Below, piece by piece: positions 11,847 to 45,840 of a DNA stretch of 64,000 nt (position 1 is the first letter of the stretch; each line of letters starts with the position of its first letter). The position numbers and the translations under genes are program-made. Source of the DNA: Pseudanabaena sp. lw0831 (lineage in GTDB: Bacteria > Cyanobacteriota > Cyanobacteriia > Pseudanabaenales > Pseudanabaenaceae); contig NZ_BBJB01000056.1 of NCBI RefSeq assembly GCF_016584665.1, forward strand, positions 1 to 64,000. Reading direction: 5' to 3'. A model generated the notes under the pieces. That model ran no database searches and was not told the DNA's origin. It saw only the letters and a list, made by a program, of their open reading frames with translations.

Positions 11847-12286
11847 AGTTTTGCCCTGAACTAATCAAGCCCATTGATCAAGTCATTTAAGAAAGCTACT
11901 TGTTTGATGTACTTAGATTAGTTGTTACAGGGGCGATCAGTCACCTTGCAGACTGTTAGGGATTATTAAGGGCAAAAAATAGCTAACACCTAACAGGTTG
12001 TTAGGTGTTACAAATAAAGAGGCTGTCCAGTGCCGATCTGACTGGTTACAATCTTTATTTTCACGATTTAAGCTTCATGGCATCCATAATACGCCCGTAC
12101 AATATCCTTAATTTTTTGCAAATAAAACCTAATCATATTTAGCTTGCCGTTCAGCCAATCTCCATAGGTTTATAAATATGTTGTTAGAGAGCAGAAAGGC
12201 TAGAAAGTGAGATAATAGGAGCGTTGAGATTAAAGTTCAAAATTAACTTTGAGTCTCAATGAACTAATAATGCAAGGTGAATTTGT
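11847..12286. other. Intergenic region between divergent sigF and CHAD genes
   Basis: 440 bp with no supportable ORF. It holds an 11-bp-stem hairpin TAACACCTAAC/GTTAGGTGTTA at 11984-12010 and an imperfect inverted repeat (TTGAGA..AAGTT with AACTTTGAGTCTCAA) at about 12225-12260, just upstream of the CHAD gene. Both divergent promoters must lie here, but no convincing -35/-10 pair stood out. Confidence 0.5.
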
Positions 12287-13270
12287 ATGAAGCCCCAGCC
12301 ATTAGATTTATCGATTAAGCTAGGTGAGTACAGTTATCAAATCATTCAACAAAACTTTCAGAGGATTGTCGAACAAGAAAAAGCCATCTTTGAAGATAAA
12401 GATCCTGAACCTTTGCATCAGATGCGAGTTGGGATGCGCCGTTTGAGAACAGCTATTCAAGTATTTGGCTCTGCGATCGCCTTACCAAAAGCAGTGAGCA
12501 ATCCATCCATCGGAAAAATCGCTAAAAGTTTAGGAGAAACCCGCGATTTAGATGTACTTCAACAAGAACTGATCAGCCGCTACCAGCCTTTGTTGGACAA
12601 TACAGAACTACTGAAGTTTGAGAAAGTTTTGAAGCGTTTGCAAAAAAAACGCGATCGCAGCTTTCTCGATTTACAGAAGACTCTGAATGGCGATCGCTAT
12701 TACGACTTAAAGCAGGGTATCCAATCTTGGCTAGATCGACCCAGATATACAATGATCGGCGATTTGTCAGTTCGAGAAGTTTTGCCCGACTTGCTACTTC
12801 CATTAATCTGTCAACTTTTTCTCCACCAAGGGTGGCTGGGAGGAACAACTATTCAGTCAGAAAAAGTCACAGTGATTTCCATTGAAAATTCTGAGGAGTT
12901 GCATCAACACCTAGAGAAATTCGTCAATGATCTCCATGACCTACGGAAACAAATGAAAGGTATTCGCTACCAAGCAGAGTTCTTTTCAGGCTTTTATGAG
13001 GATTCATACCTTGAGAGAATTGAGGAGTTTAAGACGATCCAAGAAATTTTGGGGCAACTTCACGATCGCGAAGTCTTGCGTCAGTTTTTAGAATCGACAT
13101 TGAATGCAGATTTGGCAAAGGTGCTACCCACTGTAAACCAGACAATGCAGCAGGAACAAATCACATTTTGGCAAAGTTGGCAGCCGATCCAGCAGCATTA
13201 CCTCTCCTTAAAATTTCGCCAATCATTGCGATCGCTACTCTCAACACCGATAGATATTGCACATGCATAA
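12287..13270 (+). CDS. CHAD domain-containing protein
   Basis: A 327-residue, all-helical protein. It has the paired conserved histidine/basic motifs of the CHAD domain: DPEPLHQMRVGMRRLRTAIQVF near residue 42 and VNDLHDLRKQMKGIRYQAEFF in the second half. CHAD domains bind inorganic polyphosphate along a basic channel and often accompany CYTH triphosphatases or polyphosphate enzymes. No CYTH domain is fused or adjacent. The ppx gene lies 13 kb away in this window, so a polyphosphate link is only suggestive. A pyruvate kinase-like gene follows 70 bp downstream on the same strand. Confidence 0.9.
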   Translation: MKPQPLDLSIKLGEYSYQIIQQNFQRIVEQEKAIFEDKDPEPLHQMRVGMRRLRTAIQVFGSAIALPKAVSNPSIGKIAKSLGETRDLDVLQQELISRYQPLLDNTELLKFEKVLKRLQKKRDRSFLDLQKTLNGDRYYDLKQGIQSWLDRPRYTMIGDLSVREVLPDLLLPLICQLFLHQGWLGGTTIQSEKVTVISIENSEELHQHLEKFVNDLHDLRKQMKGIRYQAEFFSGFYEDSYLERIEEFKTIQEILGQLHDREVLRQFLESTLNADLAKVLPTVNQTMQQEQITFWQSWQPIQQHYLSLKFRQSLRSLLSTPIDIAHA

Positions 13271-13340
13271 CTAGCGCATCAGAGACATTAAATCATTCGG
13301 AACTATCCTGCGAATATATAGATTTAGGAACCTTTGATAT

Positions 13341-14903
13341 ATGATTAGCCAAACTTCACCAGTTAGTATCGATCCGCAGTTTTTATCAAGTCCCCATGTC
13401 CTGTTATCGACTCTTCAAGCACTACGCCAGAAAGTTGAAAGCGAAGGAGCCATTACCTTTAACAAATGGCAATCGGGCATTCATCGGGCTGAATTTCTTC
13501 CAAGTGCCTTGAATCTAGCTCAATACCTTGCATTACGTCAGTATGACCTCCGCGAACTCCAATCCGCATTAATGCCTTGGGGATTGTCTTCGTTAGGAAG
13601 GATTGAAGCAAGGGTATTACCCAATCTTGATGCTGTGATTGCGGCGCTAGAAGTAATGTGTGGCAACTACTCTACGGAGAATTTTCACCGCCAACCACTA
13701 GAATCCTTTTTTGAAGGCAATCGTTTGCTTCTCCAGCATACCAAGGAATTATTTGGGATAGCCAGTCCCCATCGGCGGGTCAGAATTATGGTTACATTGC
13801 CCACGGAAGCTGCTACTGACTATGAGTTAGTACGCGAAATTATCCGACGGGGTGCAAACTCTGTGCGAATTAACTGCGCCCATGACAATCCAGAAATATG
13901 GGAATGCATGATCGCTCATGTTCGTCGAGCAGAGCGAGAGAATGGAACCTCTTGTAAAGTGATGATGGATTTAGCTGGTCCCAAGATCCGCACGGGAGAA
14001 GTCCTTAAGCCATCCGATAGAAAGCGGGTATTTCGAGGCGATCGCATCTTGCTCTCGCGGTGTGTACCTAAATCTGACAGTAAATTAGAAACAGGCGAGG
14101 CGATCGCATCACCTGTGGACAATTTCCAAATTTGCTGTACGGTTCCCGAAATCCTCGATTTATTAGTAGTTGATGCACCCGTATATATTGATGATGGCAA
14201 AATTCGTACTCGTGTGGTTGACACTCAATATCGATTGCCAGATGGGCAATTAGGGCTATTGCTTCAAGTAACCCATGCTAGCCCCAAAGGAGTCAAACTT
14301 CGTCCCGAAAAAGGATTGAACTTTCCCAAAACCATTTTATCGCTCAGCCCTCTTACGGCAAAAGATTTAAGCGATTTAGACTTTGTCGCCAGTCACGCAG
14401 ATATTATCGGTTACTCTTTTGTGCAGCAACCTGCTGACATTGATTTACTTCAACAAGAGTTAAGTCTTCGTTTAAATGGAAGATCTAGCCCCGCGATCGT
14501 CGCAAAGATTGAAACGGCGATCGCGGTTTCCAATCTTCCAGAATTAATCATCCATGCAGCAAGTAAACAATCATTTGGTGTGATGATCGCTAGAGGCGAC
14601 TTAGCTGTTGAAATTGGATATCAAAGATTGACGGAGATTCAAGAAGAAATTCTCTGGATTTGTGAAGCAGCTCATGTACCCGTGATCTGGGCTACGCAAG
14701 TGTTAGAAAGTTTGGTCAAAGATGGAGCGCCTTCACGCGGAGAGATGACCGACGCGGCTATGGCTGAACGCGCTGAGTGTGTGATGTTAAATAAAGGTCC
14801 CTTTATTGCCGAAGCAATCACTATTCTCGATGATGTCCTAACTCGGATGGAAGCCCACCAGTCGAAAAAAACGCCCCAGTTACGAGCATTACATTCTTGG
14901 TAA
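13341..14903 (+). CDS. Short, divergent pyruvate kinase
   Basis: A 520-residue protein. A helical N-terminal extension of about 145 residues is of unknown function. A pyruvate kinase core follows: HRRVRIMVTLP, GANSVRINCAHDN (178-183 for NCAHDN), MMDLAGPKIRTGE, IVAKIETAIAV, IARGDLAVEIG and VIWATQVLESL. The core ends at ECVMLNKGPFIAEAITILDDVL, where typical enzymes read CVMLSGETAKG and continue for about 120 more residues. The allosteric C-terminal domain is therefore absent. The usual NFSH becomes NCAH, losing a serine that helps bind K+. PEP-to-pyruvate activity is likely but not assured; a regulatory or altered-substrate role is possible. Confidence 0.85.
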   Translation: MISQTSPVSIDPQFLSSPHVLLSTLQALRQKVESEGAITFNKWQSGIHRAEFLPSALNLAQYLALRQYDLRELQSALMPWGLSSLGRIEARVLPNLDAVIAALEVMCGNYSTENFHRQPLESFFEGNRLLLQHTKELFGIASPHRRVRIMVTLPTEAATDYELVREIIRRGANSVRINCAHDNPEIWECMIAHVRRAERENGTSCKVMMDLAGPKIRTGEVLKPSDRKRVFRGDRILLSRCVPKSDSKLETGEAIASPVDNFQICCTVPEILDLLVVDAPVYIDDGKIRTRVVDTQYRLPDGQLGLLLQVTHASPKGVKLRPEKGLNFPKTILSLSPLTAKDLSDLDFVASHADIIGYSFVQQPADIDLLQQELSLRLNGRSSPAIVAKIETAIAVSNLPELIIHAASKQSFGVMIARGDLAVEIGYQRLTEIQEEILWICEAAHVPVIWATQVLESLVKDGAPSRGEMTDAAMAERAECVMLNKGPFIAEAITILDDVLTRMEAHQSKKTPQLRALHSW

Positions 14904-14959
14904 ATGACCAGCAATTGCATCGATTTTCTTTAATCCACCTAGCTTTTGAGTAATTTCTT

Positions 14960-15148
14960 ATGACTACAAAATTAATCAATGTCGAAGTCGATCTTCAAAA
15001 TCACTACACAGTATCATCCCTAAATCAAGCGATTCAGAATGAATTGATTAAGTATGGAAAGCCGCTTAATTGGATTGTGGTTGATGCAGACAAAGAACAT
15101 CAAAAAGTTCATGTTAAGGCGATTTATCCCACCCATTCGGATAAATAA
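14960..15148 (+). CDS. Small hypothetical protein
   Basis: A 62-residue protein beginning MTTKLINVEVDLQNHYTVSSLNQAIQ, followed by WIVVDADKEHQKVHVKAIY. The pattern beta-helix-beta-beta suggests a small alpha/beta fold. It follows the pyruvate kinase gene by 56 bp on the same strand and could be its last cistron. I do not recognise a family; support is codon use, position and a compact fold-like pattern. Confidence 0.55.
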   Translation: MTTKLINVEVDLQNHYTVSSLNQAIQNELIKYGKPLNWIVVDADKEHQKVHVKAIYPTHSDK

Positions 15149-15284
15149 ATCCTAGTAATTGGCTATGGCTATTACAAATGGGGTCTCAAGTTTAAATTGA
15201 GACGTAAAATTTTTATGAGATGTTGAGATATAAAAATTTTTATAGGATAATGAAGGAACATGAGTCGGCAATAATGAAATAAAC

Positions 15285-16259
15285 ATGAATCTTCTGGCGG
15301 CTGATCAACTCTTGCAGTCTAATATAACCCTGTTGATAGTCGATAATTCAAAAAGCGATCGCGCCACTTATTCTCGTTATCTGCAATCAGACTCAGAAAA
15401 TACCTATCGCATTATCGAATCAGAAACGTTAGAAGAAGGGCTAGAATTGTGGCGATCTCAGCAGCCTGACATTGTGTTGATCGATCTGAATTTGCCCGAT
15501 TGCTGTCGGTAGCGGCGATACATGGCAAGGAGAAGCGACAATTTCCCAACGACTTAGAGACATGAATTCGCCGATGATCGTATTTCTAGTAGTAGATACT
15601 GGCATTGGCATTGCTCTCAATGATTTACAACGACTCTTTCAGCCCTTTGTACAAGTAGATAGCGCACTCAACCGTCAGTACGAAGGCACTGGCTTAGGAC
15701 TTGCTCTGGTCAAGCAGATTAGATTGTCGAATTGCATGGCGGTCAAGTTACGGCTGAGAGTGAAATTGGCAAAGGCAGCCGCTTCACAGTTACGCTACCC
15801 TACGATCTGTCTCAGTCTAGCGCTTCAGAATCTGAACCAACCGTCACAAATTCACTGCAACTAGCTGTAAATCCTGAAAATGCGATCGCGCCACTTATGT
15901 TACTCGCCGAAGATAACGAAGCAAATATTCAAACCTTCACCTCCTATCTGATCGCCGTCAATTACCGTATCATCGTCGCCAAAAATGGAGAAGACGCTGT
16001 TGCCATGGCGAAAGCAAATTCCCCAGATATCATCCTCATGGATATTCAAATGCCAGGCATGGATGGTATCGAGGCAACTAAGCAAATTCGCCTCGATCTT
16101 AACTTGATTAATACTCCCATCATTGCCCTAACTGCTCTAGCGATGGAAGGCGATCGTGAAAGATGTCTAGCGGCAGGAGCCAATTCATATGTGGCTAAAC
16201 CTGTCAAGCTTCGACAACTTAACCTGTTAATTCAGCAATTTTTAGGTTCCGTAAATTGA
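15285..16259 (+). pseudogene. Decayed hybrid histidine kinase/response regulator
   Basis: Three fragments of one multidomain signalling gene. 15285-15512 is the start of a receiver domain (LLIVDNSKSDRATYSRYL, IVLIDLNLPD with the phospho-Asp) that runs out of frame. From about 15500 the sequence becomes the C-terminal half of a HATPase domain (VDTGIGIALNDLQRLFQPF, EGTGLGLALVKQI), so the rest of the receiver, the HisKA domain and the N-box have been deleted. A 5-bp tandem AGATT duplication at 15716-15725 then shifts the frame before VELHGG. From 15732 to 16259 a complete receiver domain remains open (LLAEDNEANIQTF, IILMDIQMPGMDGIEA, VAKPVKL). That part may still be translatable; the kinase cannot be. 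Confidence 0.85.
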
Positions 16260-16523
16260 ATTATCTCGCTGCAAGCGGATGGGAAACTCCAACCTAATGA
16301 GTCGGTAATTATCGATAATGCTACCTTTCATCATGGTGGAAGAATTCGTGAATTAATTGAATCGGCTGGATGTAAATTAGTCTATCTCCCTGCTTATTCC
16401 CCTGAACTCAAGCGCATTGAAAAATGTTGGGCTTGGTTAAAGTCTCGAATTCGCAAACTTTTACACATTTCTGATAATTTACGTGATGCGATGGAGTCTG
16501 TTCTTTCGGCTTCTGCGTCCTAA
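16260..16523 (+). pseudogene. IS630-family transposase C-terminal remnant
   Basis: An open stretch directly after the receiver stop codon and in its frame translates to the end of an IS630/Tc1-mariner-like DDE transposase. VIIDNATFHHGG carries the second catalytic Asp, and LVYLPAYSPELKRIEKCWAWLK carries the final Glu, ending at TAA 16521-16523. The N-terminal two thirds and the left IS end are missing. The A+T-rich stretch to 16690 contains no further gene. CACTTGGCGGCAGC at about 16527-16540 may be part of the right IS end. It marks past transposition at the edge of the helicase cassette. Confidence 0.85.
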
Positions 16524-16690
16524 TACACTTGGCGGCAGCTATAAGCAACGTAACATATTTATTTTATTTTAAAAAATTGATATCTGCCTTTTAGGTGTAT
16601 GCTCATATTTTAATCACAGATTTATCTATTAAAATTTAGAAAAATCAGCTATACTATATAAATGTTTTTACTCAATATTTGGGGGAAGAT

Positions 16691-19600
16691 ATGGAAAAGC
16701 AGTTAATTAGCCAGATTTTAGATACATACTGTACCCAAAGTCATCAAGGTCTATTTTTGCTCAGTATGCCTACGGGGTTTGGCAAAACCCATAGTGTTTT
16801 AGACTTTATCTATAAGAATTACCGTGATTTTGCTAGACAAGGCAGAAAAATTTTCTTTGTTACTAATCTCAAGAAAAACTTGCCTTGGAGAGATTTGCAA
16901 AAGCGTTTTGATGGGGATAATCTTCAAGAAGAGTTTAAAAAGCATGTTTTATTCATCGATAGTAACGTTAACACTATTAAAGCAAATCTATTATCAATAG
17001 AGGATGACATCCCAAAGAGGTATACACAAACACCTCAGTATAAAGAGCTAGTTAAATGTTTGAAGCTAGCAAAAAATATGGACAAAGAGGTTGTGGATTA
17101 TGCAAATCTCAAAATAGAGAGCGAGCTAGAACCAGAATTTCGTAGATTGATTGAACAAGAACTAAGAGATAAAAAAAATTTCAAAGATAAACCATCGCGT
17201 TTACGAGCTATCAAAGAAGATCGAGAATATCAGTGGATTGGAAAGCTTTATCCAGCCATATTTACTGATGAAAAAACAGTGATATTTCTTAGCATCAACA
17301 AATTTATTGTTAAAAATTCGACTTTAATCGAAGCATCTTATTCATTTAAAGAACATCTCAAAAAAGGATCTTTAATCTTTATTGATGAGTTCGATAGCAC
17401 TAAAGAAACTATTCTACAAAACATTATCGAATCAGGGATTAAGAATCGTATCGATCTTATTGATTTTTTTGTTGATATTCATAACCACTTAACCCAGATA
17501 CAAGACCCTAAAAATATCACTAAAAAATCTGATTGGTGGATTAAAGAATCCTCTGGTAAAAAATGGATACCACCTGATGAATTACTTCAAACATTGAGAA
17601 CAAAATCTCAAAATATTTTTAAAAAATATGACCTGCAACACAAATGTAAATCTGATGGAGAAGAGTTCAACAGAAAAAGGAACTTTTTATTTTATGACTA
17701 TAAATTTTATAGCATCTTAGATGCAAAGAAGAAAATTGTTGTTGTTACAGATACTCAGGGGAATATAAATTGGATTCGTACTTGTGATAATGACATTACG
17801 AATTCTGCTGATAATACCTTCATCGATATACGCTCCTTACTTATTGAGCTTAGTAGCTTTTTAACCTATTTTCAAAAAGGGATTAGCTATTTGTCTCAAA
17901 ATTATAAACATTTAAAAGATGAGGGCAAACTAGATAAAGAGCTTTTTGCATTCGAGTTTGCCGTTAAATCCTTACTTCATCATTTCAATGTTGATGACAA
18001 AGACATAGATTTATTGGCTAATAAAATTGTTACTGGAGAGGTCGTATATAAATCACCTCAAAAAGATCTTAAGAAACTATCTCCATTTTATGAGAGTGGA
18101 TTTTCTTATTTCAGCATTATTGATAAAGAAGATCATGATACTTTATCAAAGATTCAAATGATCGAATTCGATCAAACTCCTGAATCATTTTTAGTTGATA
18201 TTTGCAAAAAAGCTATGGTTGTAGGTATTTCGGCAACAGCTAATATAAATTCAAATATTGGCAATTATGATATTGAATATTTAAAAAGCTCGTTGAATGA
18301 ATTATTTTTTGAATTGCAGAATAATGAGATTGCAAGCCTTCAAAAAGCTTATGAAGAAAGTACGAATGGATATAATCGTCTAACTATTAAAGCTGGTTTT
18401 ATTGGTGGCAAATCCCTTGAAGAATCTAAAGTAAATTTGGAACGAGTTTTTGATGACCAAGCAATAGTTAATGATATATATGGAAAATTAAAATTTGAGA
18501 TAGGAAATAAGGAAGATGGAGATAATTCCATTGAGTTTGTCTTTGGTCGTTATGCCAAAATTTTGACGGCATGGAAATATTTTTTAGATAATCATGACTG
18601 TCATGGATTTTTGTGCTTATTAAATAAATTACCTAAAAGAAAAGATCCACAACTTGATTTGGATAAAATCATCGAATATGCTGAGGATTTACTGGATGAT
18701 GATGAATCTACAGATATAGTTGATGATATCTCGAACGTAATTGTTATACTCTCAAGTGAGAATTTTGATAGGGAAAAAGAAAAATTATTAAATGACTTAG
18801 CTAATGGTAAGCGTCGATTTATTATTTCTACTTATCAAACAGTGGGGTCGGGGCAGAACTTGCAATTTAAAATCCCGCAAAATATTCAACCAATACATAC
18901 CAATAATCGAGATAAAGATGAGTATATGGATATTAATGCCATATATTTAGATAAGCCCACTCACCTAATGGTTGCTTTAAATTATGGTAGTGTTTCAGAA
19001 TCTGATCTCATAAAATATATATTTCAATTAGAATTCTTACGAGAAGCAGGAGACATTTCTCCTAAAGAGTTCAAAAGTGAACTTACAAGAGCTTTTAGAA
19101 TATTTTTAAAAGAACCATCAAATAATTACTCTAAAAGATATTTGTATAAGACCAATGCCTACTCTAGTTTGCTAAATAAATTTATTATTCAGGCGATTGG
19201 TAGAATTTGTCGAACCAATATGAAGGCGGATAAAATTCACATTTTGGCTGATATTACGATTAAAGAACATCTTAATAATGTATCTTTGCCAAAAAACATG
19301 ATCTTAATACATGAATATAATGCTCTTGTCAGCGCAGCATCTTTAAACAGTGATATTCCCGATTCACATAATAACTGGATAGATTTGGAAAACAAAGCTT
19401 CGCATGTAAGTTGTAAAACTGCTAGTTACATAAATCAAAGGCTTTTATATGGTTCTTGGTCTGAAGATAGTAAAGAAGAATGGCTAGAAATACGTCAACA
19501 AGTTTTAAGGCAGCCAACAGTTATTGATGATTCTCAATTGATTGATCGTTGGAAACCTCTTTATTTACAACTTCCTATACCAAATAATTTCTATTACTTT

Positions 19601-20161
19601 AATAGACCGAGTGATAGTAATGTGGAAATCTCTTTCTCTAATACAGATTTTACTCTGCTGGATGAGACTACTGTTCGTCTGTCGGAATTAATGAAAATAG
19701 ATTCCTTCTATAAATTGTTTATTAAGAATGGATGGGCAACATCATTTTTGCCTTCTAAGTATATGCTTACGCCTCCAATGTTCAATGATATTTATAAAGG
19801 AGCATTAGGAGAAGTTTGTGGCAAACATGTCTTTGATGAGTTAAATATACCTTTAATTGAGCTAGATGTTAATGAGTTTGAAGTCTTTGACTTTAAAACC
19901 GAAAAAAATGTATATATAGATTTTAAGTTTTGGAGTGGGGCATTTATACGAGATGCTGAAGATGAAATAAGTAAGATTCGCAATAAAATGGAGAAGATTA
20001 AAGCGAATAAAATTATGATTATTAATATTCTTGCTCCAAAGGATCAACCATTTAAAGTGAAAATCCAAAAGGATATATCAATCATTGAGATCCCGTATTT
20101 GTATAGAGATAATAGCATCGACAAAGAAGCAATTAACTTCATTTTAGGAGAAATAAATTAA
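16691..20161 (+). CDS. SF2 helicase with C-terminal PD-(D/E)XK-like nuclease domain (putative defence gene A)
   Basis: A 1156-residue protein. The start is ATG 16691, with GGGGGA just upstream; a TTG four codons earlier is less likely. Helicase motifs visible: Walker A SMPTGFGKT (25-33), Walker B IDEFD (232-235 for DEFD), motif III GISAT (SAT 514-516), RRFIISTYQTVGSGQN (about 707-723), and motif VI QAIGRICR (834-841). The long 200-residue spacing between motifs I and II and the QxxGRxxR form resemble DinG/XPD-type enzymes, but the Fe-S cysteines are absent. Residues of about 1036-1156 look like a restriction-endonuclease fold: GEVCGKHVFDEL with Glu1041, EVFD with Asp1067, and YIDFKFW with Asp1077 and Lys1079. 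The gene is A+T-rich without HIP1 octamers and is coupled to the next gene by TAATG. An anti-phage nuclease-helicase is inferred. Confidence 0.82.
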   Translation: MEKQLISQILDTYCTQSHQGLFLLSMPTGFGKTHSVLDFIYKNYRDFARQGRKIFFVTNLKKNLPWRDLQKRFDGDNLQEEFKKHVLFIDSNVNTIKANLLSIEDDIPKRYTQTPQYKELVKCLKLAKNMDKEVVDYANLKIESELEPEFRRLIEQELRDKKNFKDKPSRLRAIKEDREYQWIGKLYPAIFTDEKTVIFLSINKFIVKNSTLIEASYSFKEHLKKGSLIFIDEFDSTKETILQNIIESGIKNRIDLIDFFVDIHNHLTQIQDPKNITKKSDWWIKESSGKKWIPPDELLQTLRTKSQNIFKKYDLQHKCKSDGEEFNRKRNFLFYDYKFYSILDAKKKIVVVTDTQGNINWIRTCDNDITNSADNTFIDIRSLLIELSSFLTYFQKGISYLSQNYKHLKDEGKLDKELFAFEFAVKSLLHHFNVDDKDIDLLANKIVTGEVVYKSPQKDLKKLSPFYESGFSYFSIIDKEDHDTLSKIQMIEFDQTPESFLVDICKKAMVVGISATANINSNIGNYDIEYLKSSLNELFFELQNNEIASLQKAYEESTNGYNRLTIKAGFIGGKSLEESKVNLERVFDDQAIVNDIYGKLKFEIGNKEDGDNSIEFVFGRYAKILTAWKYFLDNHDCHGFLCLLNKLPKRKDPQLDLDKIIEYAEDLLDDDESTDIVDDISNVIVILSSENFDREKEKLLNDLANGKRRFIISTYQTVGSGQNLQFKIPQNIQPIHTNNRDKDEYMDINAIYLDKPTHLMVALNYGSVSESDLIKYIFQLEFLREAGDISPKEFKSELTRAFRIFLKEPSNNYSKRYLYKTNAYSSLLNKFIIQAIGRICRTNMKADKIHILADITIKEHLNNVSLPKNMILIHEYNALVSAASLNSDIPDSHNNWIDLENKASHVSCKTASYINQRLLYGSWSEDSKEEWLEIRQQVLRQPTVIDDSQLIDRWKPLYLQLPIPNNFYYFNRPSDSNVEISFSNTDFTLLDETTVRLSELMKIDSFYKLFIKNGWATSFLPSKYMLTPPMFNDIYKGALGEVCGKHVFDELNIPLIELDVNEFEVFDFKTEKNVYIDFKFWSGAFIRDAEDEISKIRNKMEKIKANKIMIINILAPKDQPFKVKIQKDISIIEIPYLYRDNSIDKEAINFILGEIN

Positions 20162-22398
20162 TGATTACTATTACCAACCGTTTGCAAATTCTATTTAACA
20201 TTGAAGCTATCGAACGCGATTTTATCTTCATCAGACTCAGTAGAAAAACAAAAGAGAATAAGTGGGTAGGAGCTTCACAACTTGACTCTCTTTTTGGAAA
20301 AGAATTCATGGCTGTAGCAACTCTATTTATAGATAACAAATATGCCTATGCAATGTTCAAAAAAATTACAAATAAAAAGCCCGTAGATATTTATACATTA
20401 ATATCAAAGGCTAGAGACTCCAAACTATTTGATGATGATACTGCTATAACAAAAGTAATACCTGTAGACAATAAAGAGCGCACTGATGGTTATATTCGAG
20501 GTGCTTGGTTAGTACAGATTTTATTTAACTATCTTGCATCATCTAAATCTCGATACGAAAAGTATCAATTTTGTAATCTTACAGGTTCACTTTTTGTAGT
20601 GTTTCAAAGTCCACATAGAAAAGGACATTTAGATATAGCAAAAATAAAAATAGATGCGAAAGATGAAGATTGGTTTCTAAATGTTAGTATTGTGCGATAT
20701 CGCTTGTTATCAGATATAAAGATTGAGTTGGCAAAGATAAAAGATCCCAAACGAAAAGATCAATTAGAGAAAGCTCTAAAAAAGCCTTATTATAGATTAG
20801 AAGGAACTACTTCTACTTCCACTTTCAGAAGACATCTTCCAAGTGATGGCGAACTTGATATTAATTCGACTTATGTTGAGTGTGGCAAAACTAATGAAAA
20901 GGCATCATTGCCATTTCTCGAATTTGGTAGTGTCGAGGCTTTTAATAAAAGTCGAGCGGGTATCTTCCATAATATTTTTAATCTAGCCCAAAAAGATTTG
21001 TCCGAATATATTTCTATTGACTTGTTAGGACGAGATGCTGTTGATTACTGTGAGCTTAAAAATTCGCTAATCAAAGATCCTACACAGATGAACCTTATAT
21101 TAGCTGATCAGAAGATTCACATTGTAGACAAGGTTGGTAGTGAGGAATCTAGGGCTATAATTGATAATTCAAAAGAAATTATCATGAAAGAGTATCGTTT
21201 ACCATCTGAGATAATTACCATTGGGAATGAAGATAAGCCTAACAAACTGAATATAAGAATAATCCATGAAAAGTCTTACTACACAAAGAATAATATGGAA
21301 GAAGAGTATAAATACTCAGATCTAGATCTAAGTATTTATAGGCAGAACATTACTATTGAATCTTTAAAACTTCAAAATAAAAATATTAAGAATATTTTAG
21401 AAACAAGTGTTAAAGAACTGTTAATTAAAAAAGATATCAGTGACCTTAAATTTAGTTTGTTTAAATGGTCTAATTTAGGTTTATCTGGTACTTGGACTTT
21501 TGCGGCTTGGGATGAAGATGAAGAGAATGTTATCTTTATGGAAATTCTTCACGATGGTCAGTTTAGTTTTTCTAGGCGTTCTCAGGATTGCGATCTCTTC
21601 AATATTTCTCAATTTGATGCATATTTAGAGTATATGTCTTACAAGAAATCCGATACAAAAGAATCGGCTACTTATGATGAAGATGATGTGAACCAAAAAA
21701 GGAAAAAGAAACCTAACTTAGAAGGTTTGGTTATTTCTAACGAAGGGGATATAAACCAAATCTTTTCAACGCAGGAAATTACTTTGCCTGATTTAAAAAA
21801 AATACATACTCTTCTTTCAGAGAAAGAGGTGTTATTCCCAGAAGAAATTTCTACAGGATATGTTCTTTCGGAGATAGTTCAACAATTTTTAAAAACATAT
21901 TCTGTTTCCTCACAGCAAGGTTTTAATAGCTTACTAGATGAACTTAAAGAATTTGGCAGTAATACAGTAGACAAAAATGAGTTTTATAAATTGATTGGTA
22001 AACACCTCAGTAAATCTGGAAAAGCAGCAAAGGGTAAAGATCCTGAAAAACTCAGAGATTATTTCTGGGAAATGTATGGAGTTAGATTTATTTTTCCTAA
22101 AGACAATCGAAGTAAAGAAGAAATATTTGACGCTACAGTTGATATTAAGTACTTTGGCGAGACTGATAATGAAGCTTATTACTTTGTTGGCTGTAGTAAA
22201 GCAAGCATACAATCTTCTCTAAAAGATTCTTGTCACTTACGTAAAATTGTTTCAGTCAATAAAGACTCGAAACTAGTGTTTCAACAGCTACTTCCCACAA
22301 TGGATGTTGATTTTGTAAGAACTGGTCAAAGTACAGTTATTCCTTTTCCGTTTAAGTACATTAGAGAATATATGGCAATGAACAAACAAAAGAAATAA
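20161..22398 (+). CDS. Large unassigned partner of the helicase-nuclease (putative defence gene B)
   Basis: A 745-residue protein starting at ATG 20161, which overlaps the stop of the helicase gene by one base (TAATG), so the two are translationally coupled and probably work together. I recognise no domain. It is soluble, Lys-rich and mixed alpha/beta. Visible landmarks are VASQL-like N-terminal strands, a possible dimer or nucleic-acid surface around YYRLEGTTSTSTFRRHLP (residues of about 217-234), SGTWTFAAWDEDEENVIFMEILHDG (about 442-467), a charged linker with KRKKKP (about 515-521), and a C-terminal domain with FWEMYGVRF and YYFVGCSKASIQSSL. A prokaryotic Argonaute/pPIWI-RE-like partner is conceivable, since those pair with helicase and nuclease, but no PIWI catalytic motif is seen. 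Composition matches gene A and not the host. Confidence 0.75.
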   Translation: MITITNRLQILFNIEAIERDFIFIRLSRKTKENKWVGASQLDSLFGKEFMAVATLFIDNKYAYAMFKKITNKKPVDIYTLISKARDSKLFDDDTAITKVIPVDNKERTDGYIRGAWLVQILFNYLASSKSRYEKYQFCNLTGSLFVVFQSPHRKGHLDIAKIKIDAKDEDWFLNVSIVRYRLLSDIKIELAKIKDPKRKDQLEKALKKPYYRLEGTTSTSTFRRHLPSDGELDINSTYVECGKTNEKASLPFLEFGSVEAFNKSRAGIFHNIFNLAQKDLSEYISIDLLGRDAVDYCELKNSLIKDPTQMNLILADQKIHIVDKVGSEESRAIIDNSKEIIMKEYRLPSEIITIGNEDKPNKLNIRIIHEKSYYTKNNMEEEYKYSDLDLSIYRQNITIESLKLQNKNIKNILETSVKELLIKKDISDLKFSLFKWSNLGLSGTWTFAAWDEDEENVIFMEILHDGQFSFSRRSQDCDLFNISQFDAYLEYMSYKKSDTKESATYDEDDVNQKRKKKPNLEGLVISNEGDINQIFSTQEITLPDLKKIHTLLSEKEVLFPEEISTGYVLSEIVQQFLKTYSVSSQQGFNSLLDELKEFGSNTVDKNEFYKLIGKHLSKSGKAAKGKDPEKLRDYFWEMYGVRFIFPKDNRSKEEIFDATVDIKYFGETDNEAYYFVGCSKASIQSSLKDSCHLRKIVSVNKDSKLVFQQLLPTMDVDFVRTGQSTVIPFPFKYIREYMAMNKQKK

Positions 22399-22416: not shown

Positions 22417-22442
22417 AGGCAAGGGGCTTAAGCCCCTTGCCT
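22417..22442. terminator. Palindrome between convergent cassette and bciB
   Basis: A perfect 26-bp palindrome AGGCAAGGGGCTT/AAGCCCCTTGCCT, 18 bp after the stop of gene B and just beyond the bciB stop. It probably terminates both transcripts. Confidence 0.6.
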
Positions 22443-41435: not shown

Positions 41436-42962
<1,527 letters not shown>

Positions 42963-42963
42963 T

Positions 42964-43025
42964 TTCATAAAACTAGCAATAAAAAAGAGGGCATATGCCC
43001 TCTTTTTTATTGCTAGTTTTATGAA
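42964..43025. terminator. 62-bp perfect palindrome after atpA
   Basis: TTCATAAAACTAGCAATAAA followed by AAAGAGGGCA/TGCCCTCTTT and the full mirrored arm, with a T-run in the descending arm. It starts 1 bp after the atpA stop and ends the atp transcript. Confidence 0.8.
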
Positions 43026-43067
43026 TTAGAAATTTAGGATTGCTATCTATAATATAGGAATTAAGAA

Positions 43068-44513
43068 GTGAAGCATAAAATTATTGCCATTGTTGTAATC
43101 AGTTCTATTATTCTGTTTTTATCTAGTAGTTTAAGACATATATTTTTTCATTCAACTGCCAATGATTTAGGGATTTTCGATCAGTCAGTTTATTTGATCA
43201 GTCAAGGGGAAAAGCCTATTTCTTCACTTCTTGGATTCCATATCTTAGCTGATCATGCTGCATTTATTTGGTATCCAATAAGTCTTTTTTATAGGATTTA
43301 TCCAAGTGTATATTGGCTTTTTGCAATTCAATCTATTGCATTATCTTTAGGAGCATATTTTGTTTATCAACTTTCATTACAACAAGGATTAAAAGAAAAA
43401 CAGTCTCTAGCAATAGCAATAATTTATTTACTTTACCCAACTATAATTAGTGCTAATCTTTTCGACTTTCACCCCGATACAATAGCTCTACCCAGCTGTT
43501 TTTGGTTGGTTCTTATAGCGCGCCAAGCAAATCAAAGTAATTATAAGACTTCATTAATTAAGTTTTTTACGGCAATTTTAATTATTGTTAGTTGTAAAGC
43601 TGTTTTAAGTCTGACAGTATTAATGACGGGAATATGGCTTGTATTTTTTGAAAAAAAAAGAATCTATGGCTTAATTGCTATAATACTAGGTTTAAGTTGG
43701 TTTATTATTTCAACTCAATTTATAATTCCATATTTCGGGTCAAATGCTGCGTCAATTAGCCGTCATCTAACTCATTACAGTTATATTGGCAACTCATTTA
43801 TTGAAATTGTAACTAATACTTTCTTTAAGCCACAAATTTTAATTAATCATGTTATTTCTTTCTCAATTTTATTTTACTTACTAAGTTTAATCCTTCCTGT
43901 TATTTGGGGATTATCTCTCAAATATTTGAATCCAATAATATGTGGATCACCTCAATTATTAATGTGCATCTTGTCATCTAATAAAAGTTTCTATACAGTT
44001 GGATATCAATACACATTGCCTATAGTAACATTTTTATTTTTGGCTGTAATTTCTAATATTAAAACTCAAAGCTATTGCTTAAAAAACAAAAATATAATTT
44101 TAATTTTAGTGGTTTTAGGATTTCTCATCTCGTTTAATCCTCATATTGATATAGGTAGTAATATAGGTCGAGACTTTTCATCTTTGACATACAGTTTACA
44201 AGCGAGTGATAAGGCAGTCAAAATTATTAATGAATTGGATAACTTACGAAAAGATGGATATAAAGGTAGTGTGTTAACTACTGCAAAGATAATTCCACAT
44301 TTATCTCATAGATTTATTATTAAGCTGGCAGATGAGAATATATCCAAAGATGAAATTGGAACATTTGATTACGTTTTACTCAATACTCATTATCCAATTT
44401 TGACAAGTAGCAGAGAATTTGCAAAAAGCTTATCTGAGGAATTAAAAATTGATATCAGATATCAGATGTTTTTCCATGAGAATGGCATTTTATTATTTGT
44501 TAAAGAGATATAG
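43068..44513 (+). CDS. DUF2079 multi-pass membrane protein
   Basis: A 481-residue protein starting at GTG 43068 with AAGAAG upstream. It has about ten hydrophobic segments, the first at residues 4-24. DUF2079 landmarks are visible: NDLGIFDQSVYLIS, LADHAAFIWYPISLFY, YLLYPTIISANLFDFHPDTIALP and an internal SCKAVLSLTV. The family resembles GT-C glycosyltransferases, and a lipid-linked sugar transferase role is inferred. The gene is A+T-rich with no HIP1 octamer, unlike the atp genes before it, and lies exactly where atpC would be expected. Confidence 0.85.
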   Translation: MKHKIIAIVVISSIILFLSSSLRHIFFHSTANDLGIFDQSVYLISQGEKPISSLLGFHILADHAAFIWYPISLFYRIYPSVYWLFAIQSIALSLGAYFVYQLSLQQGLKEKQSLAIAIIYLLYPTIISANLFDFHPDTIALPSCFWLVLIARQANQSNYKTSLIKFFTAILIIVSCKAVLSLTVLMTGIWLVFFEKKRIYGLIAIILGLSWFIISTQFIIPYFGSNAASISRHLTHYSYIGNSFIEIVTNTFFKPQILINHVISFSILFYLLSLILPVIWGLSLKYLNPIICGSPQLLMCILSSNKSFYTVGYQYTLPIVTFLFLAVISNIKTQSYCLKNKNIILILVVLGFLISFNPHIDIGSNIGRDFSSLTYSLQASDKAVKIINELDNLRKDGYKGSVLTTAKIIPHLSHRFIIKLADENISKDEIGTFDYVLLNTHYPILTSSREFAKSLSEELKIDIRYQMFFHENGILLFVKEI

Positions 44514-44677
44514 ATCTATTATTTGGTGAGGCGATAGCATCGCTCTAATTTTTGATGAATAGGCGATCACTATTTGGAGATTTGAATGATGGGCGATCGT
44601 ATTTGCTCAAGTTAGCTATTGGTTGCTGATACGACCATAGATATAGAAGTCTTTTTAATAACGCATATTGCTCTCCC

Positions 44678-45840
44678 TTAGGACAAAATTTCTTGCAGAT
44701 TCACAACAACCCAATCTTGGTCTTTCTCTGTCAATCCATAATATAAAGGGATACTAATTGCACTTTTATAATACATTTCTGATTTCGGGAAATCACCTTG
44801 ACGAAAACCTAGATTTTGATAATAGGGATGGGTATGTACGGGAATATAATGCAGATTTACCCCAATTCCTACTTGGCGAAGATGCTCGAATACCTGACGA
44901 TGAGTTTTGCTGATTTTGTCAAGATTTAAACGAATTACATACAGATGCCAACTAGATTCGGTATCAAAATGCTGGTATGGCAAAGTAAGCGGTAAATCTT
45001 GCAATAAATGATTATAACGTTGGGCTAAAAATCGCCGCCTAGTTATAAATTTATCCAATCTTTGGATCTGACTTGCCCCCAATGCTGCTTGAATATCGGT
45101 CATGCGGTAATTAAAACCTAGCTCTAATTGCTGGTAATACCAACCACCATGAACTTCACCTTGCATTAAATCTGGATTGCGCGTAATGCCATGCGATCGC
45201 AAACGGAGCAATTTTTCATACAAATCTTTGCGATTAGTTAACACCATTCCGCCTTCTCCAGTAGTGATAATCTTGACTGGATGAAAGCTAAACACAGCTA
45301 AGTCAGAAAACTCACAACTGCCGATCGCTTTGTTCTGATATTTACCACCGATCGCATGGGAAGCATCTTCTATTACCTTAAAGCCATACTGTTGAGATAG
45401 AATCGAAATTTTCTTCATATCGCAGGATTGACCTGCAAAATGTACGGGTACTAAAACTTTGGGTAAACATCCTAACTGAGCCACTTTAGCTAACTTTTGC
45501 TCTAATAGATCGATACTCAGGTTATAGGTATCTAGATCAATGTCCACAAAATCAACTTTAGCGCCGCAATACAATCCACAATTTGCCGAAGCGACAAAGG
45601 TATTTGGTGAAGTCCAGAGATAATCCTGCTCACCTAAGTCAATTGCTAAACAAGCAATATGCAAGGCAGCCGTAGCACTAGAAACAGCGATCGCATACTT
45701 AACATCGCAGTAATCAGCTACAGCTTGCTCAAAGCGATTAACTGCCGAACCTTGAATTAGCCAGTCTGACTGCAAAACTTCAATCACACTTTGAATGTCG
45801 GCTGCATTAATGTCTTGTCGTCCGTAGGGAATATAAGCTG

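What the first reader, a model, noticed from the sequence alone, without database searches (positions are those of the whole stretch)
16691..22398. Two-gene helicase-nuclease cassette with an unassigned 745-aa partner
Seen: gene A carries SF2 helicase motifs (SMPTGFGKT, DEFD, GISAT, QAIGRICR) and a C-terminal E...D...DxK pattern of PD-(D/E)XK nucleases. Gene B starts at the TAATG overlap with gene A. Both are A+T-rich with no GCGATCGC octamer across 5.7 kb, while flanking host genes have many. The cassette lies next to an IS630 tail and a decayed kinase. Known: coupled helicase-plus-nuclease genes in such places are often anti-phage systems (BREX, DISARM, Hachiman and pPIWI-RE families share parts of this logic). 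Gene B matches none that I can recall. Inference: an undescribed or poorly described defence system in which gene B recognises the target or controls the helicase-nuclease.
Basis: partly seen in the sequence, partly recalled or inferred. Interest (0 to 1): 0.87.

Follow-up and report, generated by a model that had tools for sequence, protein, structure and literature searches.

The report
Cyanobacterial DdmDE plasmid-elimination gene pair
The two genes are a cyanobacterial version of DdmDE, an already described bacterial system in which a DNA-guided Argonaute-like protein calls in a helicase-nuclease to destroy invading plasmids; the find is a new, quite diverged member of a known kind.

Summary
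In detail: two overlapping, A+T-rich genes without HIP1 octamers. The interpretation "undescribed defence system" is not. Gene A is DdmD: PADLOC DdmD 5e-53, PDB DdmD 5e-54, Foldseek ranks 1-21 all DdmD or DdmDE entries. Gene B, named by no Pfam, NCBIfam or PADLOC model, is DdmE, a prokaryotic Argonaute: a profile of seven cyanobacterial copies finds L. casei DdmE at 1.8e-23 and V. cholerae DdmE at 1e-6, and its predicted structure matches DdmE at Z 26.7, against 11.3 for the best other Argonaute shown. The pair is conserved: 69 of 80 loci with B also hold A or a piece of it. It is sporadic (7 of 386 cyanobacterial genomes; 3 of 26 of the genus; the window's own counted in both), sits at a site that is empty in relatives, and moved recently (dS 0.14-0.16 against 0.8-1.4 in flanking genes) under purifying selection. 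By homology it should eliminate plasmids rather than phages; nothing was tested at the bench. Verdict: new member of a known kind. PADLOC's DdmE model misses this protein.

The parts
16691..20161 (+). gene A, ddmD homologue, 1156 aa: SF2 helicase (Walker A 26-33, DEFD 232-235, SAT 514-516, QAIGRICR 834-841) with C-terminal PD-(D/E)XK nuclease (E1041, D1067, D1077, K1079)
20161..22398 (+). gene B, ddmE homologue, 745 aa: long prokaryotic-Argonaute fold
20159..20163 (+). TAATG stop/start overlap joining the two genes (A stop 20159-20161, B start codon 20161-20163)
   Evidence: similar tight coupling (-60 to +60 nt) in 48 of 50 loci with both ORFs long
16571..16690 (+). left flank that travels with the cassette; the alignment to the P. 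frigida copy starts at 16571
   Evidence: similar sequence (16542-16640, 76%) lies beside the FrhB/FdhB-type gene in L124, which lacks the cassette
22420..22439 (.). palindrome CAAGGGGCTTAAGCCCCTTG between gene B and the convergent FrhB/FdhB-type gene; also printed beside that gene in L137, a relative without ddmDE
15562..16259 (+). decayed histidine kinase/response regulator next to the cassette (context, not part of the system)
16260..16524 (+). IS630-type transposase tail (context); recognised by eye

Best explanation
It is a DdmDE plasmid-elimination system. Inferred from the characterised DdmDE systems: gene B (DdmE), an Argonaute that cannot cut by itself, carries a short DNA guide and base-pairs with matching plasmid DNA; it then recruits gene A (DdmD), which leaves its resting dimer, loads on the displaced strand, travels along it with its SF2 motor and damages the plasmid with its PD-(D/E)XK domain. 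Shown here: identity of both proteins by sequence and predicted fold, intact catalytic motifs of A, a conserved gene pair, recent horizontal spread, purifying selection. Not shown: guide type, target choice, plasmid loss, or any action on phages.
For: DdmD: PADLOC 5e-53, PDB DdmD 5.3e-54 and, for the V. cholerae protein, 1.6e-43, Foldseek ranks 1-21 are DdmD or DdmDE entries, E 2e-57 to 5e-20, then DinG at 1e-11. DdmE: phmmer 1.9e-7, profile 1.8e-23 and 1e-6, Foldseek ranks 1-6 are DdmE chains, VIA Z 26.7 over 615 residues at 3.5 A, best non-DdmE row Z 11.3. Pairing. Co-occurrence: the 7 of 386 cyanobacterial genomes with a DdmD match are the 7 with near-full-length B; the 14 control genomes gave none. 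Intact motifs. Selection: dN/dS 0.22-0.26. Mechanism: review PMC12409362 (passages read).
Against: Gene B shares only 15-18% identity with the solved DdmE chains in structural alignment and is missed by PADLOC's DdmE model, so details of guide or target use could differ. Nothing read here reports bench work on a member of this clade. One relative sits on a 292-kb plasmid, so the range cannot be all plasmids; the review says DdmDE mainly targets small ones. The inactive PIWI domain is not proved.
Confidence: 0.92

Rival explanations
1. An anti-phage system: the same two proteins chiefly recognise phage DNA.
For: Mobile, sporadic helicase-nuclease pair, as many anti-phage systems are (general knowledge).
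Against: The named family acts on plasmids (PMC12409362 passages); the related ApsAB showed no activity against eight E. coli phages (PMC11096173 passages). Phage DNA might still be hit as a side effect.
Confidence: 0.08
2. An ApsAB-type system (Argonaute-like ApsB with helicase-nuclease ApsA), the sister family, ApsAB-like members of which are reported from some cyanobacteria.
For: Same architecture of A; PMC11096173 passages report ApsAB-like systems in some cyanobacteria.
Against: B is significantly similar to DdmE by sequence, whereas that paper found no similarity between ApsB and DdmE. The ApsB MID pattern (Y409, K413, Q431 followed by G, K489 in ApsB) is absent from B: Y-x3-K occurs only at 63, 296 and 491, and QG only at 586, none in the MID stretch. 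A is 1156 aa, while ApsA numbering passes 1435. No ApsA or ApsB sequence was in hand for a direct tree.
Confidence: 0.03
3. A housekeeping DNA-repair helicase-nuclease pair.
For: SF2 helicases and PD-(D/E)XK nucleases occur in repair enzymes; DinG and XPD are the next structural matches of A.
Against: Present in 7 of 386 cyanobacterial genomes and 3 of 26 of the genus; the site is empty in relatives; foreign composition; broken copies are frequent.
Confidence: 0.01
4. A dead cassette that no longer works.
For: Neighbouring kinase and transposase are decayed; several cyanobacterial copies elsewhere are broken, and L124 looks like a relic.
Against: Both ORFs here are intact, with the catalytic motifs of A and dN/dS 0.22-0.26 against P. 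frigida.
Confidence: 0.05

Closest known systems
DdmDE of Lactobacillus casei (PDB 9iw3, 9ix4, 9ixm)
   Same: Best PDB sequence match of both proteins and best Foldseek match of both models; helicase-nuclease plus long Argonaute.
   Different: 15-22% identity in the Foldseek alignments; different phylum; no bench data for the cyanobacterial pair.
DdmDE of Vibrio cholerae VPI-2 (PDB 8u3k, 9ezy, 8u0u, 9bgk and others)
   Same: Same architecture; the model of B aligns over 615 residues at 3.5 A, Z 26.7, the highest Z of all rows.
   Different: Weak direct sequence match of DdmE (E 0.003; 1e-6 with a profile); here the pair sits beside an FrhB/FdhB-type gene, not on VPI-2.
ApsAB of E. coli ST38 (PMC11096173)
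   Same: Helicase-nuclease with an Argonaute-like partner, anti-plasmid, on a mobile island (passages).
   Different: B resembles DdmE and lacks the ApsB MID motif; A is shorter.

Membership tests
DdmDE | DdmD: SF2 helicase with C-terminal PD-(D/E)XK nuclease, similar over its length to DdmD | tested here: met
DdmDE | DdmE: long prokaryotic-Argonaute fold similar to DdmE | tested here: met
DdmDE | ddmD and ddmE adjacent in one operon | tested here: met
   Adjacency is met: 1-nt overlap here; 48 of 50 loci with both long ORFs within -60 to +60 nt. Co-transcription was not testable.
DdmDE | DdmE catalytically inactive PIWI (no DEDX tetrad) | tested here: inconclusive
   No residue of B from 437 to 735 is acidic in 70% or more of the 51 aligned sequences, which argues against a family-wide tetrad; but five acids there (E521, E539, D689, D715, D717) are invariant in the seven rows of A1, and no residue-level superposition was possible.
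DdmDE | Named by PADLOC's own DdmE model (PDLC04131); a tool's criterion, not a defining trait | tested here: not met
   No match for the window protein; the model matches 23 of the 51 sequences of A3.
DdmDE | Short DNA guides; autoinhibited DdmD dimer; handover to the target | not testable with these tools
   bench work
DdmDE | Elimination of plasmids | not testable with these tools
   bench work
ApsAB | ApsB MID motif (Y-x3-K ... QG ... K) | tested here: not met
   against the residues named in PMC11096173 (passages); the pattern does occur in the MID stretch of 2 of the 51 aligned DdmE, so it is a weak criterion by itself
ApsAB | Gene A groups with ApsA rather than DdmD | not tested
   no ApsA sequence was fetched
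BREX, DISARM, Hachiman, pPIWI-RE | A PADLOC match of gene A or B to a component of these | tested here: not met
   (E up to 1): DdmD and two weak Cas3 models for A; none for B

The most novel reading that the evidence does not exclude
Cyanobacteria and methanogenic archaea share a distinct, diverged DdmDE clade (support 100), whose DdmE here escapes a standard defence model, and which may use other guides or choose other targets than the solved systems: it lives in hosts that often keep many plasmids (recalled), one copy rides on a 292-kb plasmid, and two of the three archaeal copies found have a UvrD/PD-(D/E)XK gene directly upstream.
Probability: 0.2. Interest if true: 0.5.

Novelty: new member of a known kind. 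Interest (0 to 1): 0.3.

Why it matters
It turns an 'unassigned 745-aa partner' into a testable Argonaute, places intact-looking DdmDE pairs in cyanobacteria and methanogens, and shows that a scan with PADLOC's 2023 models finds DdmD here but not its partner, so such systems could be scored as incomplete. If active, it could explain poor plasmid maintenance in such strains, and its recent transfer between Pseudanabaena species (cassette dS 0.14-0.16, flanks 0.8-1.4) gives a natural comparison of genomes with and without it.

Tried and rejected
Pfam and NCBIfam gave no accepted name for either protein (ResIII on A was below its cut-off). A viral-contig scan for B found 0 relatives among 342 pattern matches. 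Among 72,556 plasmid records only one holds B (Nostoc pn2); five hold a match to A, four of them at 21-41% identity in other bacteria.

The site between the sigma-factor gene and the FrhB/FdhB-type gene was considered as a defence hotspot. Stretches were fetched from 18 of the 25 other genomes of the genus; in 10 of the 18 the sigma gene lay in the stretch: 5 have at most 290 bp between the two genes, and the other 5 hold ddmDE (L129), large kinase-like ORFs (L123, L132; by eye) or one small gene (L124, L137). It is a variable site; it was not shown to be a defence hotspot.

A conserved third gene was looked for by clustering 539 neighbouring ORFs (25 largest clusters shown): none of those goes with the cyanobacterial copies in general; the recurring neighbours in seven Nostocales loci look like the shared flanks of one site.

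Whether DdmDE in cyanobacteria or archaea is already in print is open. Searches of an open-licence library: 'DdmDE' (25 papers, 24 listed), 'DdmE'+'Argonaute' (10), 'DdmDE'+'cyanobacteria' (2), 'DdmDE'+'archaea' (16, 15 listed), a wider one on defence systems in cyanobacteria (170, 15 listed), two or more of 'DdmD', 'DdmE', 'Methanosarcina' (6). I read passages of four papers only; PMC12259885 cites DdmDE in its reference list alone. PMC11096173 says that the broad ApsA/DdmD family ranges from cyanobacteria to Enterobacterales, so cyanobacterial members of the family at large are known. Three primary DdmDE papers looked up were not held. In one search families that are not listed are not excluded.

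Full report
What is there. Gene A (16691-20161, 1156 aa) and gene B (20161-22398, 745 aa) overlap by one base, as described. The cassette is 31.1% G+C against 42.8% for the rest of the window and holds 0 of the window's 100 HIP1 octamers. Upstream lie a decayed kinase/regulator and, by eye, an IS630-type transposase tail. The host is a Pseudanabaena by inference: B is 91% identical to copies in P. frigida and another Pseudanabaena MAG.

Gene A is DdmD. PADLOC's DdmD model matches at 5e-53; two Cas3 models match weakly (0.0015 and 0.0044) at the N-terminal helicase motifs. Among PDB sequences the best matches are DdmD of L. casei (5.3e-54) and of V. cholerae (1.6e-43) (organisms). An AlphaFold2 model (34 sequences, pLDDT 84.8) has DdmD or DdmDE entries at Foldseek ranks 1-21, followed by DinG and XPD helicases. 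In the 34 aligned sequences, the window's included, the helicase residues and E1041, D1067, D1077 and K1079 are invariant; 33 of the 34 match the PADLOC DdmD model.

Gene B is DdmE. It matches no Pfam, NCBIfam or PADLOC model at E up to 1, but phmmer against PDB sequences finds one DdmE (9iw3, L. casei) at 1.9e-7 and that of V. cholerae at 0.003, and a profile of seven cyanobacterial copies finds them at 1.8e-23 and about 1e-6. The model (51 sequences, pLDDT 85.7) has six DdmE chains as its best Foldseek matches (4e-33 to 4e-23), then human and other Argonautes from 4e-9. VIA-align gives Z 26.7 (3.5 A, 615 residues) to V. cholerae DdmE and 11.3 to the best other Argonaute shown. In the 51 aligned sequences the C-terminal TVxPFPFK...E and a cluster in the likely MID region (Y374, Q395, K423, D425) are nearly or fully invariant, while no residue of B from 437 to 735 is acidic in 70% or more of the rows. 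This fits a PIWI domain without a catalytic tetrad but does not prove it: five acids there (E521, E539, D689, D715, D717) are invariant in the seven cyanobacterial rows of A1.

The pair is conserved. A scan of one genome for each of 84,980 species found 96 relatives of B, of which the best 80 were kept. 69 of these 80 also give a match to A, in a few only to a piece of it (for example L083); of the 11 others, 9 lie at a contig end and 2 (L078, L085) carry only fragments of B. In the 50 loci with A of 950 aa or more and B of 550 aa or more, all 50 pairs are on one strand and 48 are spaced -60 to +60 nt; the exceptions are L090, by my reading a start-codon artefact of the longest-ORF rule, and L096, where B is split by what looks like an IS21-type gene pair. 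By record title 24 of the 80 are cyanobacteria and 3 are methanogens; most of the rest are Bacillota and Bacteroidota. In a tree of 51 DdmE the cyanobacteria are one side of a branch (95) and, with three methanogens, form a well-supported group (100) on a long branch; it was a quick search with SH-aLRT support only, and three rows (L100, L098, L055) are long.

Distribution and mobility. In 386 cyanobacterial genomes, the window's own included, the DdmD family is found in 7, and in 0 of 14 control genomes. They are the same 7 that carry near-full-length B; one search lists 11 genomes with a match to B, the other four being one decayed copy (G030) and three matches at E 9e-5 to 6e-4 that are probably chance. 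In the genus, 3 of 26 genomes have B, the window's own included, all beside the same FrhB/FdhB-type gene. In five relatives the sigma-factor gene and that gene lie at most 290 bp apart, so the site is empty. L124 keeps about 100 bp similar to the cassette's left flank (76%) and short collinear pieces that look like a relic of ddmD (E 0.02-0.1). Against P. frigida the cassette is 92.8-98.2% identical in the eleven 500-bp windows from 16801 to 22300, with dS 0.14-0.16 and dN/dS 0.22-0.26, while three neighbouring genes have dS 0.8-1.4: the cassette moved between species long after the flanks diverged and is kept under purifying selection. Against the second MAG, L022, B has dS 0.17 and two neighbours 0.36 and 0.99. 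Broken copies are frequent elsewhere: 8 of the 24 cyanobacterial loci (L026, L028, L031, L040, L044, L046, L065, L083) read as broken, sequencing errors not excluded. One intact-looking copy is on the 292-kb Nostoc plasmid pn2.

How it works. By homology to the characterised DdmDE (PMC12409362, passages read): DdmE binds DNA guides, finds plasmid DNA, recruits DdmD from an inactive dimer, and DdmD translocates on the strand and damages the plasmid; mainly small plasmids are hit. PMC12904381 (passages) tells the same story with the two names exchanged in one sentence. All mechanistic steps are inferred for this pair.

What it is not. PADLOC names no component of BREX, DISARM, Hachiman or pPIWI-RE in either protein. 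It is not ApsAB by similarity of B to DdmE and by absence of the ApsB motif from its MID stretch, though a tree with ApsA was not made. It is not a core repair system.

Verdict. A new, diverged member of a known kind.

Noticed in passing
L030:75-2426 and L041:90-2525: In two of the three methanogen loci found, a gene with UvrD helicase C-terminal and PD-(D/E)XK_1 domains lies directly upstream of ddmD on the same strand (Pfam); possibly a third component, possibly a separate system.
   Followed up: partly
L061:1288-2418 and eight other Bacillota loci (L050, L054, L059, L063, L064, L067, L086, L090): A recurring neighbour of ddmDE in nine Bacillota loci; the one tested has a WYL domain (E 7.7e-6), perhaps a regulator.
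   Followed up: partly
L002:4570-10133: ddmDE carried on the 292-kb Nostoc plasmid pn2: an anti-plasmid system on a plasmid.
   Followed up: no
L028, L029, L031, L045, L046, L065, L083: Seven Nostocales loci share flanking genes around one ddmDE site; L029 looks intact, while the other six are broken or cut by a contig end: repeated loss at one site.
   Followed up: partly
L124 (G398), between the sigma-factor gene and the FrhB/FdhB-type gene: Short collinear matches to the cassette's left flank and to ddmD, without the cassette: a likely relic (weak E-values).
   Followed up: partly
L096:2963-7605: ddmE split by two genes that look like an IS21-type insertion (by eye).
   Followed up: no
window 12027-16570: CHAD, pyruvate-kinase-like, broken kinase and IS630 tail lie between the sigma-factor gene and ddmDE here, but are absent at that place in P. 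frigida.
   Followed up: partly
window 43068-44513: Second A+T-rich stretch, in a HIP1-free gap (41953-45193): a DUF2079 membrane-protein ORF.
   Followed up: partly
PADLOC model PDLC04131 (DdmE): The model matches only 23 of the 51 DdmE sequences of A3 and not the window's, while the DdmD model matches 33 of the 34 of A4: complete systems may be scored as incomplete.
   Followed up: yes
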